A DNA stretch of 37,162 nucleotides. It comes from a virus. This document shows positions 1,999-11,350 of this stretch, one piece after another (the first letter of the stretch is position 1; each line of letters starts with the position of its first letter). Made by a program: the position numbers and the translations under genes. The notes beneath the pieces were generated by a model. The model had not been told where the DNA came from. It was given only the letters and a program-made list of their open reading frames with translations, and did not search any database. Where the stretch lies: positions 1-37,162 of the IMG/VR virus record IMGVR_UViG_3300027762_000019. One strand, 5' to 3'.

Positions 1999-2397
1999 AT
2001 GCTCGAAATCAGTAAGGGTTTAGCGAAAAGCCAAGCCGAAGAACAAAAGAACCTTCTTGATACAATCTTAGATGGAGCTCAAAAGGCAGCACAAGTCGTG
2101 CAGAACATAAAGTCTATCTCTACCGGGTCGGATCCCAAAGCCACCGAACCCTTATATAAACCAGTGAAGGAGCCAGAAGCGATGATAAATAAACCGCAAA
2201 TGCCAAGTTTTCTGCAAAAGCCCACAATCTCAAAGAATGAGCCTATGCTTGGTATTTTTGAAGCAATCAGCAAAATAAGGAGCAAAGTTGATGCTTTGTT
2301 TGAGATTGAAGTAATAGGGAAGGCAGATGCTCATGAAATAGCCAAAGATTTGTATGAATTGCATATGGCTGTTTATCAGAGCATCGAAAAAAAATAA
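1999..2397 (+). CDS. Hypothetical helical protein
   Basis: 132 residues. Residues 1-45 look helical and Ala/Lys/Gln-rich, a Pro/Lys-rich linker follows, and a second helical segment is at about 85-125. No family recognised. The ATG at 1999 has AAAGG upstream; a TTG at 1972 opens the same frame but lacks a good site. The only plus-strand gene in the first 3 kb; a terminator hairpin overlaps its stop. Confidence 0.5.
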   Translation: MLEISKGLAKSQAEEQKNLLDTILDGAQKAAQVVQNIKSISTGSDPKATEPLYKPVKEPEAMINKPQMPSFLQKPTISKNEPMLGIFEAISKIRSKVDALFEIEVIGKADAHEIAKDLYELHMAVYQSIEKK

Positions 2398-2419
2398 CCC
2401 ATCATCCTTGATGGGTTAT
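2386..2419 (-). terminator. Rho-independent terminator for the 2456-3109 genes
   Basis: An 11-bp perfect stem (2394-2404 with 2409-2419) with a TCCT loop, followed on the minus strand by ATTTTTTTTC. It lies between convergent genes. On the plus strand no T-run follows, so it should mainly stop leftward transcripts of the paralogue pair. Confidence 0.8.
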
Positions 2420-4463: not shown

Positions 4464-5117
4464 TCATGGTTCGGATTGAATCAACTTCTGAATAGTCGTC
4501 CAGAAAGAATTTAACTTTGCTATGTCTGTTTCTGCCTTTGTTTTGTCTGTCAAATATTCCAAACTTTTACCAGTCTTTGCAACCCAATCAACATTTGGAG
4601 TGTTCAACACTCTGATGATTGCGTCCTTCAGAGCTCCTACTTGTCCATTGCCGTTTCCAGGTTCTTGTCTCTTGAAGTTTTGTGGAAGTGGCTGATTGGT
4701 GCTATCCGGATCCTTGCTATCATCTTCTGTGGGTATCAAGAAAGTCTGGAGCAGACATGTCTTTAATGCATAGCTTGCTGTTTTGCCAAGCCCTTTGTCG
4801 CCGTTTTCGATACACTCACCGCCAGTTATGCACGATACACTCGAGCCATCGATTGCCCAAAACGTGAAACGATACTTTGCGATATGGTGCAGACCACGAC
4901 CCTCGATAACTTCAGTGCTGTGCTCCAGGAGCTCTTGTGTCATAAAGACGCCATGAGCAGCGAACGCAGAGTGAAGCGCGTTAAAGACATCGTCTATGCC
5001 TCGATACTTAAACGAAAACTTGCCTACGCTGGTCTTGCCCTTGCTTACGCTGTCCACCTCGGCAAGGATTTTTGCCATTGATGAATAAATCATTGGTTTC
5101 TCTTGTTGTTCTGCCAT
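4464..5117 (-). CDS. erf: ERF-family single-strand annealing protein
   Basis: 217 residues. The N-terminal 145 residues match the ERF recombinase pattern: KYRGIDDVFNALHSAFAAHG at about 38-57, then GECIENGDKGLGKTASYA and the conserved exit LLQTFLIPTEDD. ERF proteins (P22 Erf is the type) form rings on single-stranded DNA and anneal complementary strands, supporting phage recombination and genome circularisation. The C-terminal 70 residues after a Gln/Gly-rich linker are variable. TAGGAG precedes the ATG. It follows the replication gene, a common grouping. Confidence 0.85.
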   Translation of the reverse strand: MAEQQEKPMIYSSMAKILAEVDSVSKGKTSVGKFSFKYRGIDDVFNALHSAFAAHGVFMTQELLEHSTEVIEGRGLHHIAKYRFTFWAIDGSSVSCITGGECIENGDKGLGKTASYALKTCLLQTFLIPTEDDSKDPDSTNQPLPQNFKRQEPGNGNGQVGALKDAIIRVLNTPNVDWVAKTGKSLEYLTDKTKAETDIAKLNSFWTTIQKLIQSEP

Positions 5118-5172
5118 TTTTCACGCTCCTATATCGTTGGTTAGTCTATTTTTATAGTACAACCATCGATAT

Positions 5173-6006
5173 TTAGCAAGTGCTGGTTTCTCGTTTTAAT
5201 CGTTCTGTTTCCCGATCCATAATTGCAAGCGCATCTGCCAAATCTTCCACCACTGTCGTTTCATCATGCTTTCCATGAAACTTCTTGATTTCTATGATAA
5301 ACTGACTTGGCATCCACCTCATCTTACCAAGCCCCCCACGATCAACGTAATGATCATACCAAGCCTTGATATGTTCCACTGTATAAACGTCCAACAGCGT
5401 TTGAGCTACCACCGTTATTTGCTCTTTATTCGGCCAAGGGAAGTTTTTGGTTTCTGGTGAGCCGTCCGGCTTAAACATTGCGCTTAGGTATCCAACCGTT
5501 TTCTTCAGATTAGAAGATTTATTACTTTTTGGAGATTTTTGTACAATACCTTTAGGTATTGTTTTTTCTTCCTGAGGGAGTTCTTTCTGAGGGAGATCGG
5601 TGTAGCTCTCTGCTACCCTCCCCGGTAGCTCTCTGCTACCCTCAGCAGAATTGGCGTACACCCATTCTTGGAAAACCTTGGGTGTTAAAGAATACAAATT
5701 TGATCGCTGGCGGTTATTTTCATCAAACCTGTTTACCCGAAGTATGTAGCCATTTAGACTTAGTTTTTTGATTACCCTGAAAACTGTATGCCGCGAAAGA
5801 CTGGTGAGCTCTGCAAACCTATCAACACTTATGTATCGTTGTGAGTGTTCAAAGTCTCTATAGTCTAATTCACTGCCAAGAGTGAGCATGACTAGCTTTT
5901 CATTTGCGGTTAGATTTTTGTTTTGTGATATCGCCTTGAGAAATCGACCACCGGCATATGGGTTTACTGGGAAATTATTTTGTGACGTAATACACTGATT
6001 TTCCAT
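5173..6006 (-). CDS. Replication initiator-like winged-helix protein (O-like)
   Basis: 277 residues. A winged-helix domain occupies about 30-110 (helix NEKLVMLTLGSEL, recognition helix SRHTVFRVIKKLSLNGYI, wing to YSLT). A repetitive Glu/Pro/Gln linker at about 130-155 is followed by a C-terminal domain with WPNKEQITVVAQTLLDVY and GKMRWMPSQFI. This layout fits phage O/DnaD-type initiators that bind the origin and recruit helicase. ATG at 6006 chosen for its AAGGAGA. Repeats inside the linker may be an embedded origin, as in lambda O. No helicase or polymerase is visible, so host enzymes are probably used. Confidence 0.65.
   Translation of the reverse strand: MENQCITSQNNFPVNPYAGGRFLKAISQNKNLTANEKLVMLTLGSELDYRDFEHSQRYISVDRFAELTSLSRHTVFRVIKKLSLNGYILRVNRFDENNRQRSNLYSLTPKVFQEWVYANSAEGSRELPGRVAESYTDLPQKELPQEEKTIPKGIVQKSPKSNKSSNLKKTVGYLSAMFKPDGSPETKNFPWPNKEQITVVAQTLLDVYTVEHIKAWYDHYVDRGGLGKMRWMPSQFIIEIKKFHGKHDETTVVEDLADALAIMDRETERLKRETSTC
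5543..5570 (+). other. Terminator-like hairpin inside the replication gene, antisense
   Basis: ACAATACC (5543-5550) pairs perfectly with GGTATTGT (5555-5562) across a TTTA loop and is followed on the plus strand by TTTTTTCTT. It resembles a rho-independent terminator but reads opposite to the gene that contains it. It could end an antisense transcript or be part of an origin structure. Confidence 0.35.
5572..5649. repeat. Repeat cluster inside the replication gene, candidate origin
   Basis: A perfect 19-base direct repeat GTAGCTCTCTGCTACCCTC at 5602-5620 and 5625-5643, each copy holding a GTAG/CTAC dyad. Before it are two copies of CTGAGGGAG (5572-5580, 5587-5595), and CCCTCAG after it is their inverse. 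In protein the copies give the ELPQ repeats and related residues of the linker. Iterons inside an initiator gene are known for lambda O; the assignment as origin is inference. Confidence 0.4.
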
Positions 6007-9168: not shown

Positions 9169-9197
9169 ATTGTACCCGAGAAAGTTTCTCATTTCAA
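9169..9197 (-). promoter_or_regulatory. Strong sigma-70-like promoter
   Basis: TTGAAA (complement of 9192-9197), 17-base spacer, TACAAT (complement of 9169-9174), reading to the membrane coiled-coil gene at 9130. Both boxes are close to consensus. The spacer contains the palindrome at 9178-9190. Confidence 0.65.
9178..9190. promoter_or_regulatory. Operator-like palindrome in the promoter spacer
   Basis: GAGAAA-G-TTTCTC is a perfect 13-base dyad centred in the spacer of the leftward promoter at 9169-9197. A repressor bound here would block RNA polymerase. The divergent plus-strand gene at 9246 has its own TACAAT at 9210-9215, so one site could control both directions. Confidence 0.4.
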
Positions 9198-9245
9198 TGA
9201 ATCGCGTGGTACAATCATGACATACACAAAAAAGGGGGGATTTAT

Positions 9246-10115
9246 ATGAAATCACTATTGATTTTGGTTTTTGCAATGATTTGCGCGTGTTCCGCGCCGA
9301 TCGAGCAAAAGATGCGTTCAGGAGAAACCGGCCGAAGTTATGGGTATAAAAAGAGCTTTTTGCCAGAAAACAATTTCCATGAGACAAAGCGATATTATGC
9401 AGCTGGCGAAGTCACAGAGGATGATTTTAACCTGGCTATGGACGCCGCGATGGAAATATATGCACCAATATTTTCAAATTTGGGTTTAAATCTAACAATT
9501 CAGGGAGACTACCGCGACGAAACGGTCAATGCCTTTTGTAGCAGAGATGGGGAAGATGTAACTGTCCAAATGTTCGGTGGATTGGCAAAACAGCCGCAAA
9601 TGTCGCTTGAAGGCTTTGCACTTGTGATCTGCCATGAGCTTTTTCACGCAGTTGGGGGAATTCCTAAATATACAGGGAATGATTGGGCAAGCATTGAAGG
9701 ACAGGCAGATATGGGTGCTACTTCTGCTTGTGCTCGTAAAATGTTTGATCCAAGTAGCCCAATAAACTATCGTGCTTTAGAGCTCATGAAAAGAAAAAAC
9801 CCAAAACAGCCAGCAAACTGCGCCTCATACAAAGGCGCAGACAAGCAGGTGTGCGAACTATCGTTAATCGGCGGCCTATCTCTTGGCGCTGTTCTTGCAT
9901 CATTAAATGATGAACCGACACCAAAATACGAGACACCAAGCAAGGTAGTTGTCAAGAAAACCATGGAGGCTCATCCTCCCTCCCAGTGCAGGTTGGATAC
10001 CTACAAAGCAGGCGCTTTGTGCAATAAAACATGGAATGACTCAATAATTCCATCGACTAAAGCGCAAGACGCCGCTGTAAACTGCGAACGTCCAAAGTGC
10101 TGGTATAAAGCATAA
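9246..10115 (+). CDS. Lipoprotein with gluzincin-type zinc metalloprotease motif
   Basis: 289 residues. A lipoprotein signal peptide ends at MICAC near residue 15. The catalytic region is at about 130-160: CHELFHAVGG gives HExxH and, 17 residues on, IEGQAD gives the third ligand Glu, as in gluzincins. Many cysteines in the C-terminal third suggest disulfides and an exported location. I recall similar HELxH...EGQAD proteins from Bdellovibrio-like bacteria. It could modify the host envelope or help lysis. GGGGGG lies upstream of the ATG. Protease activity is predicted, not shown. Confidence 0.7.
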   Translation: MKSLLILVFAMICACSAPIEQKMRSGETGRSYGYKKSFLPENNFHETKRYYAAGEVTEDDFNLAMDAAMEIYAPIFSNLGLNLTIQGDYRDETVNAFCSRDGEDVTVQMFGGLAKQPQMSLEGFALVICHELFHAVGGIPKYTGNDWASIEGQADMGATSACARKMFDPSSPINYRALELMKRKNPKQPANCASYKGADKQVCELSLIGGLSLGAVLASLNDEPTPKYETPSKVVVKKTMEAHPPSQCRLDTYKAGALCNKTWNDSIIPSTKAQDAAVNCERPKCWYKA

Positions 10116-10135
10116 TTTTTTGTTATAAATTGCTT

Positions 10136-10197
10136 GCTGTTCTTTCTCTTGCGCAAGAGTGAATGGCGTAAAAACCATTCATAAGGGAAAGAACAGC
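10136..10197 (+). ncRNA. Three-way-junction-like structured element before the endonuclease gene
   Basis: Outer stem P1: GCTGTTCTTTC (10136-10146) pairs perfectly with GAAAGAACAGC (10187-10197). Inside are P2, the palindrome CTCTTGCGCAAGAG (10146-10159), and P3, TGAATGG (10060+100 to 10166) with CCATTCA (10075+100 to 10181), i.e. 10160-10166 with 10175-10181, loop CGTAAAAA. The endonuclease ATG is four bases after P1. It may control translation of the endonuclease or mark the mobile unit's boundary. No T-run follows. Confidence 0.5.
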
Positions 10198-10200
10198 GAC

Positions 10201-11016
10201 ATGCCTAGAAAACCAATCGACATCTCTGGAAAAAAGTTCAACAAATTAACAGCAATAGAATTCAATCATATAAAAGAAAAAAAACATTTTTGGCTTTTTA
10301 AATGTGATTGTGGAAAATTAATTATAGCAGAAAAATTGAATGTATTATATGGAAGCAAAAAATCATGTGGTTGTATTAATAATAAAATAGATATAACTGG
10401 ACAAAAATTTAACAGATTAACTGCTATCAAATTTAGTCATATGGATAAACATTGGTTTCAACATTGGTTGTTTAGGTGTGATTGTGGAACAGAAAAAATA
10501 ATTGGAATGCAGAATGTAATGCATGGAAAAACAATCTCATGTGGTTGCTATAACAAAGAAAAATCAACAACACATGGCTATACAAATCATCCATTGTTTA
10601 ATATTTGGAAAAAGATGATACAAAGGTGCCATGATAAAAATGATCGAACTTATAAAAGCTATGGAGCTAGGGGAATTAGTGTGTGCGATGAATGGAAAAA
10701 TTCATTTGATTCTTTCGCTAAAGATATGGGAACCAGACCAAGCAAAAAACATTCTATAGACAGAATAGATAATAATTTAGGTTATAGAAAAGATAACTGT
10801 AGATGGACTACTGGGCATGAACAATCAATAAACAGAAGAAATGTTATTTATGTAGAATATAACGGAGAAAGAAAAAGATTATTTGATTTATGTGAAGAAA
10901 TGGGAGTTGATAGAGTTAGGACATTCAAGAGAATAAATTATTATGGATGGACCACAGAAAAAGCTATCACTGAGCCACCAAGAAAAATTAAATCCCGCCG
11001 CAACCATCATAATTGA
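10201..11016 (+). CDS. Homing-type endonuclease with tandem Cys-motif repeats
   Basis: 271 residues. Two N-terminal repeats (about 5-55 and 60-115) each read D.[ST]G..FN[KR]LTAI ... CDCG ... SCGC, probable zinc-bound DNA-binding units. The next region (120-215) has HPLFNIWKKMIQRC, YKSYGARGISVCDEW and SIDRIDNNLGYRKDNCRW, the pattern of free-standing HNH-type phage endonucleases. The last 40 residues (LFDLCEEMGVDRVRTFKRI..YGW) resemble the helix-turn-helix found in homing enzymes. The gene is visibly more A/T-rich than its neighbours and overlaps the convergent gene, so it was probably acquired. Confidence 0.75.
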   Translation: MPRKPIDISGKKFNKLTAIEFNHIKEKKHFWLFKCDCGKLIIAEKLNVLYGSKKSCGCINNKIDITGQKFNRLTAIKFSHMDKHWFQHWLFRCDCGTEKIIGMQNVMHGKTISCGCYNKEKSTTHGYTNHPLFNIWKKMIQRCHDKNDRTYKSYGARGISVCDEWKNSFDSFAKDMGTRPSKKHSIDRIDNNLGYRKDNCRWTTGHEQSINRRNVIYVEYNGERKRLFDLCEEMGVDRVRTFKRINYYGWTTEKAITEPPRKIKSRRNHHN

Positions 11017-11350
11017 AGTAGCCTTTGCCCCACCATCTCACCGCATAATAATTCCTGTACGCTGCCAGCATAAACCAAGGTTTCTTGTAACCATCGCAAT
11101 CTATCTTTACAGTAGCAAGCATATGCTCCAAAAACTTTTTATCTGCTTTTTCTCTATCCCTTTCCGTTCTCCCGATATGATATAGGACATCATGAAGATT
11201 AGCCGAATCAAAAAACAGGTGCGATGAAGGCAATTCATGTAGCAATGGCGTCAATGGATCATTCTTACCACCTACGCCATTAGCTACAAGTTTTTTACAT
11301 ACAGGACAAACACCACCGAATTCTGCCATTTGCTCGGTTATGATGATCAT
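10988..11350 (-). CDS. DUF1353 / phospholipase A2-like protein
   Basis: 120 residues. The centre reads FDSANLHDVLYHIGRTERD..KADKKFLEHM, matching the DUF1353 pattern and recalling the HDxxY catalytic helix and ADxxF stretch of viral phospholipase A2 domains; YYAVRWWGKGYF near the end also fits DUF1353. A CPVC pair is near residue 15. If active, it would cut phospholipids during entry or lysis. It is the last late gene, starting by an ATGA overlap with the large ejection-protein gene. Its last 29 bases overlap the convergent endonuclease gene. Enzyme activity is inferred. Confidence 0.55.
   Translation of the reverse strand: MIIITEQMAEFGGVCPVCKKLVANGVGGKNDPLTPLLHELPSSHLFFDSANLHDVLYHIGRTERDREKADKKFLEHMLATVKIDCDGYKKPWFMLAAYRNYYAVRWWGKGYFNYDGCGGI

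What the first reader, a model, noticed from the sequence alone, without database searches (positions are those of the whole stretch)
10136..10197. Three-way-junction-like structure directly before a homing-type endonuclease
An 11-bp perfect outer stem encloses a perfect 14-base palindrome and a 7-bp hairpin, in 62 bases, ending four bases before the endonuclease ATG. No clear ribosome binding site lies outside the fold. T4 homing endonucleases are known to be held off by hairpins that hide the start; this could be such a switch, or the boundary mark of a mobile unit. The gene is AT-rich and sits at the junction of convergent genes, as expected for an insertion.
Basis: partly seen in the sequence, partly recalled or inferred. 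Interest (0 to 1): 0.6.

Follow-up and report, generated by a model that had tools for sequence, protein, structure and literature searches.

The report
Conserved RNA lock before phage endonuclease
Just in front of a selfish DNA-cutting gene in this phage lies an RNA hairpin that hides the gene's ribosome-binding site; the same hairpin, with matching paired mutations and nearly identical unpaired letters, sits before the related gene in a distant phage and was not found in relatives lacking the gene, so it is probably a real on/off control.

Summary
The structure is real and supported by comparison, but it is probably not a three-way junction. All arms are present as described. The predicted RNA ground state is one long hairpin: 15-17 bp outer stem, 8-nt one-sided bulge GCGCAAGA, 7-8 bp inner stem, 8-nt loop CGUAAAAA (-32.7 kcal/mol, z -5.2; the three-way form is 9 kcal/mol worse). 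Its 3' arm holds the only ribosome-binding-site-like sequence of the HNH gene. A distant relative, IMGVR_UViG_3300047200_000206, carries the same element directly before an HNH gene 51% identical in protein: same bulge, loop differing in one base, every pair kept, four pairs changed on both sides, three pairs deleted together. There a perfect AAGGAGG is buried in the stem. Five relatives with the left-neighbour gene but no HNH there lack the element, including the window's closest relative (terminase 95%). It is not in Rfam nor at about 160 more distant HNH loci. Best reading: a cis-acting translational lock travelling with a free-standing HNH endonuclease, working like the T4 I-TevI and Aeh1 mobE hairpins. 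It differs in having no recognisable internal sigma70 promoter and two conserved unpaired segments, suggesting release by a trans-acting factor or processing. It rests on two sequences and no experiment.

The parts
9246..10115 (+). Upstream gene: M48-like metallopeptidase-type protein, probably co-transcribed with the HNH gene (no terminator-like site between them)
   Evidence: Pfam M48, E 0.003, below cut-off; homologues in six relatives; promoter-like site 9186-9215 and no terminator hit in the gap
10134..10150 (+). 5' arm of outer stem; pairs with and hides the RBS-like sequence
   Evidence: the counterpart in G007 keeps every pair
10151..10158 (+). Conserved 8-nt one-sided bulge GCGCAAGA (with the preceding CUU it forms the palindrome CUUGCGCAAG)
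   Evidence: identical in L032; same geometry (bulge 8 nt on 5' side, 0 on 3' side) in both
10160..10181 (+). Inner hairpin: 7 bp with 8-nt loop CGUAAAAA (CGUAAUAA in G007)
   Evidence: three of seven pairs changed on both sides between the two phages
10183..10197 (+). 3' arm of outer stem, containing the RBS-like AAGGGA (10183-10188)
   Evidence: probability unpaired about 0 across the arm; in G007 the perfect AAGGAGG (L032:1698-1704) lies in this arm, 9 nt before TTG
10201..11016 (+). HNH endonuclease, 271 aa, with two tandem N-terminal zinc-ribbon-like repeats (G007 relative has one)
   Evidence: phrog_374 HNH endonuclease E 4.7e-82; 51% identical to the G007 gene
10988..11350 (-). Convergent neighbour; its native C-terminus overlaps the last 29 bases of the HNH gene
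   Evidence: C-terminus matches the G008 relative

Best explanation
The element is a cis-acting RNA lock in the leader of a free-standing HNH homing-type endonuclease gene. On transcripts entering from the upstream gene it folds into a long bulged hairpin that buries the ribosome-binding site, so the endonuclease is hardly translated. It belongs to the mobile gene unit rather than to the phage site. Shown here: the structure is conserved by compensatory changes, its 3' arm carries the RBS-like sequence, and it occurs with the gene and was not found without it. Inferred: translation is actually repressed. Also inferred: the conserved bulge (GCGCAAGA) and loop (CGUAAWAA) serve to release or reinforce the lock, most likely by binding a trans-acting factor (perhaps the endonuclease itself or a phage or host RNA-binding protein), otherwise by RNA processing.
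For: Fold -32.7 kcal/mol, z -5.2; RBS-like AAGGGA essentially always paired. Homologous element before the 51%-identical HNH gene in G007: model match E 4.5e-10. All pairs kept, 4 changed on both sides, 3 pairs deleted on both arms together; sliding the partners drops pairing to 40-68%. Unpaired positions 15/16 identical, against 42% at third codon positions of the HNH genes and 28% in the upstream genes. In G007 a perfect AAGGAGG is inside the stem. Element and HNH gene both absent at this site in five relatives that keep the upstream gene, including G001, whose terminase is 95% identical, while G007 (74%) has both. Precedents: I-TevI, segB, Aeh1 mobE (PMC2988022; PMC3014915).
Against: Only two sequences support the covariation; the shuffle control reaches the observed value in 26 of 500 because two sequences give little room. 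The window's RBS is a modest AAGGGA with a long 13-nt gap (from its last G) to the ATG. No internal promoter or other release mechanism identified. Most other HNH genes of the wider family lack any such hairpin. No expression data.
Confidence: 0.75

Rival explanations
1. Full T4 I-TevI-type switch: a phage-specific promoter inside the hairpin makes short late transcripts that lack the 5' arm and are translated freely.
For: Same logic in T4 and Aeh1 homing genes (PMC2988022). Four other HNH leaders found here (L048, L060, L093, L149) have RBS hairpins with sigma70-like promoters starting past all or part of the 5' arm.
Against: No sigma70-like promoter inside the element in the window or G007. 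The conserved bulge and loop do not resemble a promoter, and the motifs do not recur elsewhere in the window.
Confidence: 0.15
2. RNA-processing site: the long bulged hairpin is cut by RNase III or another nuclease in the bicistronic transcript, protecting the upstream mRNA and freeing the HNH RBS.
For: Long duplex with an asymmetric bulge between two genes; no terminator-like site between them. Processing sites of this shape are known in T7 (own knowledge).
Against: RNase III substrates do not usually conserve bulge and loop letters (own knowledge); the pairing covers the RBS precisely in both phages.
Confidence: 0.15
3. Relic of an intrinsic terminator of the upstream gene, or a bidirectional terminator between convergent genes.
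For: Position 21 nt after the upstream stop codon; relatives G004 and G008 have hairpin-plus-T-run sequences after this gene (read by eye).
Against: No T run follows the stem on either strand and the terminator scan does not report it; another gene junction in this phage has an ordinary short stem with T run (2394-2419). Terminators do not conserve bulge and loop.
Confidence: 0.04
4. DNA-level element: palindromic operator or target-like site of the endonuclease (autorepression as in I-TevI), with the RNA hairpin incidental.
For: CTTGCGCAAG is a perfect palindrome, identical in both phages; I-TevI autorepresses through an operator (PMC2988022).
Against: The inner hairpin and outer stem co-vary as pairs, which a duplex-DNA site would not need.
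Confidence: 0.1

Closest known systems
RBS-sequestering hairpins of T4 I-TevI/II/III, T4 segB and Aeh1 mobE
   Same: Homing endonuclease gene; stable hairpin just before the start codon burying the RBS on read-through transcripts; mobE is also a free-standing HNH gene (PMC2988022, PMC3014915).
   Different: Not a T4-like phage by family matches; no recognisable promoter inside the hairpin; two conserved unpaired segments (8-nt bulge, 8-nt loop); no sequence match in Rfam.
seg43(25) leader hairpin of Aeromonas phage 25
   Same: Very stable hairpin immediately upstream of a free-standing homing gene.
   Different: There the RBS lies outside the hairpin (PMC2988022); here it is inside.
Phage translational operators bound by protein (T4 gene 43 and gene 32 leaders)
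   Same: Leader RNA with conserved loop letters at or near the RBS (PMC3014915).
   Different: No known binding protein here; the regulated gene is a selfish endonuclease.
phrog_374-type HNH endonucleases of phages
   Same: Protein family membership is strong.
   Different: This element was not found at about 160 other loci of the family.

Membership tests
T4/Aeh1-type RBS-hairpin control of homing endonucleases | Downstream gene is a homing-type endonuclease | tested here: met
   phrog_374 HNH endonuclease, E 4.7e-82; homing activity itself not testable
T4/Aeh1-type RBS-hairpin control of homing endonucleases | Stable RNA hairpin that buries the RBS | tested here: met
   conserved pairing
T4/Aeh1-type RBS-hairpin control of homing endonucleases | Promoter placed so that short transcripts lack the 5' arm | tested here: inconclusive
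   no sigma70-like promoter inside the element in either phage; phage-specific promoters unknown
T4/Aeh1-type RBS-hairpin control of homing endonucleases | Translation repressed on long transcripts | not testable with these tools
   needs expression experiments
Intrinsic terminator | G+C-rich stem followed by a T run | tested here: not met
   no T run after the stem on either strand
Known Rfam RNA family | Covariance-model match at the gathering score | tested here: not met
Terminal repeat of a mobile unit | Related copy at the other end of the unit | tested here: not met
   no second copy of the 5' half in the window within 3 mismatches; no second model match at another place
Mobile HNH unit including its leader | Leader present with the gene and absent without it | tested here: met
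   the sites without the gene hold other sequence, so they are not clean empty sites

The most novel reading that the evidence does not exclude
The element is a new regulatory RNA class: a switchable leader in which a conserved bulge and loop (possibly joined by a short GCG:CGU pseudoknot, or through the palindrome CUUGCGCAAG competing with the RBS for the 5' arm) bind a specific protein or ligand and so turn a selfish endonuclease on at a chosen moment, for example through autoregulation by the HNH protein.
Probability: 0.3. Interest if true: 0.75.

Novelty: new variant of a known kind. Interest (0 to 1): 0.52.

Why it matters
Hairpin control of homing endonucleases is documented in the reviews read here for T4-like phages, with release by an internal promoter. 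Here is a covarying example in an apparently unrelated phage lineage, with conserved unpaired letters that point to a different, factor-dependent release. That makes the question of how selfish endonucleases time their expression testable on a 62-nt leader. It also suggests that the lock travels with the gene.

Tried and rejected
Other copies of the element: window, arm pattern in viral contigs (none), bulge-loop pattern in viral contigs (G007 plus two chance hits in coding DNA), similarity in phage records (short chance matches; the Citrobacter phage Chris1 hit lies inside a structural operon), covariance model over about 170 HNH and related loci (nothing credible), 369 genomes of the class of one HNH-bearing genome (nothing; the phage's host is unknown, so this says little). 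Direct scans with the upstream protein and the 753-aa protein found no relatives in viral contigs; the virion protein and terminase did. Terminator reading rejected. T4 gene 25/38-type enhancing hairpin rejected: no RBS lies before the stem. MAFFT alone misaligned the two elements; the alignment was remade through a covariance model. An N-terminal extension of the HNH protein starting inside the element (GTG 10159; TTG 1666 in L032) was judged unlikely: no RBS precedes either codon.

Full report
OBSERVATION. Perfect 11-bp inverted repeats with span up to 70 occur by chance about 0.55 times per shuffled window, and the window has two others, so the arms alone prove nothing. The full fold is far less ordinary: -32.7 kcal/mol for 10120-10210, z -5.2, no shuffle as stable. 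Among 41 gene leaders of the window it has the lowest energy and lowest z (-5.3; next -4.5). The predicted structure is one long hairpin: an outer stem of 15-17 pairs, an 8-nt bulge GCGCAAGA on the 5' side only, an inner stem of 7-8 pairs, and an 8-nt loop CGUAAAAA. The three-way junction, with the palindrome folded on itself, scores -23.5. In G007 the corresponding values for the isolated element are -24.6 and at best -19.2. The DNA model agrees with the long hairpin.

SURROUNDINGS. The gene at 10201-11016 matches phrog_374 HNH endonucleases (E 4.7e-82) and is 30% GC in a 44% GC window. Upstream lies a metallopeptidase-like gene (weak Pfam M48 match) with a promoter-like site at 9186-9215. 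The scan reports no terminator between the two genes and no sigma70-like promoter in the gap. The convergent neighbour's native C-terminus overlaps the HNH end by 29 bases. The other genes include Erf-like annealing protein, O-like replication protein, terminase and internal virion protein families.

RELATIVES. Scans with the 930-aa virion protein and the terminase found ten further related contigs. In G007 (IMGVR_UViG_3300047200_000206) the homologous upstream gene is followed, 16 bases after its stop, by GCTGTCCTTCTTGCGCAAGACTGATGGCGTAATAACTATCAGAAGGAGGACAGC, then ACAC and a TTG-started HNH gene, 51% identical to the window's protein. A model made from the window element alone finds it at E 4.5e-10. 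All 41 comparable cells form standard pairs. Four pairs changed on both sides (one outer, three inner), one changed to G-U, and three pairs were deleted from both arms together. Sliding the partners by 1-3 columns drops pairing to 40-68% with no two-sided change. The bulge is identical and the loop differs in one base; 15 of 16 aligned unpaired positions are identical, against 42% at third codon positions of the HNH genes and 28% in the upstream genes. Conservation is thus concentrated on the element, and in the stems it acts on pairing rather than on letters.

THE ELEMENT GOES WITH THE GENE. Relatives G001, G002, G004, G008 and G009 have the upstream gene but no HNH gene beside it (G009 has only a distant fragment elsewhere) and no element (a match of E 0.74 in G002 is at noise level and elsewhere). 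G001 is the window's closest relative (95% in terminase, 82% in the virion protein), while G007 is more distant (74%) yet has both. The sites without the gene hold other sequence: a small gene, a terminator-like hairpin, or a nuclease-like gene (read by eye). The locus is therefore a variable spot and not a clean empty site. Whether HNH plus leader moved in independently or was lost in G001 cannot be told.

RBS. In G007 a perfect AAGGAGG, 9 nt before the start, lies wholly inside the 3' arm. In the window the aligned AAGGGA is equally buried, with probability unpaired near zero. No other RBS-like sequence precedes the start. The gap of 13 nt from the last G to the ATG is long, so basal translation may be weak even when open.

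MECHANISM. Most likely a translational lock on read-through transcripts from the upstream gene. How it opens is unresolved. The T4 solution, a promoter inside the hairpin, has no sigma70-like counterpart in either phage, though a phage-specific promoter cannot be excluded. The conserved bulge and loop suggest a bound factor or a tertiary contact. Bulge GCG and loop CGU could form a three-pair pseudoknot, and CUUGCGCAAG lets the 5' arm choose between the bulge's AAG and the RBS's AAG. These last two are hypotheses from reading the sequence; the letters concerned are the same in both phages, so covariation cannot test them.

COMPARISON. The reviews PMC2988022 and PMC3014915 describe RBS-burying hairpins for I-TevI/II/III, T4 segB and Aeh1 mobE, with internal late promoters. 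The present element works like these on the evidence of structure and position. Full membership is not claimed because the promoter feature was not found. It matches no Rfam family and was not found at about 160 other HNH loci.

WIDER SURVEY. Leaders of 158 related HNH genes fold somewhat better than 425 control leaders (z < -3 in 7.0% against 2.4%; Mann-Whitney p 0.008). RBS burial with z < -1.5 occurs in 8 of 112 against 10 of 425 (Fisher p 0.03), but a stricter cut is not significant. The G007 leader itself is among the 8. Four HNH leaders (L048, L060, L093, L149) combine an RBS-burying hairpin with a sigma70-like promoter whose transcripts would lack all or part of the 5' arm and fold weakly, the I-TevI layout. 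Promoters of this kind are about as frequent in hairpin-bearing controls (7 of 27 against 5 of 18), so this is a lead only.

LIMITS.

Noticed in passing
L149:2923-3010; L048:2914-2998; L093:2914-2998; L060:2920-3005: Four HNH leaders from other phages or prophages show an RBS-burying hairpin with a sigma70-like promoter placed so that its transcripts lack all or part of the 5' arm, the T4 I-TevI layout; such promoters are not more frequent than in hairpin-bearing control genes.
   Followed up: partly
window 5118-5192 (-), leader of the Erf-like gene 4464-5117: Second strongest leader fold of the window (-20.3 kcal/mol, z about -4.3 to -4.5).
   Followed up: no
window 10201-10555: The HNH protein has two tandem N-terminal zinc-ribbon-like repeats (residues about 7-58 and 63-116) where the G007 relative has one.
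   Followed up: no
window 9246-10115 and homologues L018-L023: The spot after the metallopeptidase-like gene differs among relatives (small gene, terminator-like hairpin, nuclease-like gene, HNH unit): a variable spot.
   Followed up: partly
L032:1649-1654: Just before the element G007 has a second anti-RBS stretch, CCTCCT, that could also pair with the buried AAGGAGG.
   Followed up: no
window 2394-2419: Ordinary intrinsic terminator for the minus strand (perfect stem followed by a T run).
   Followed up: no
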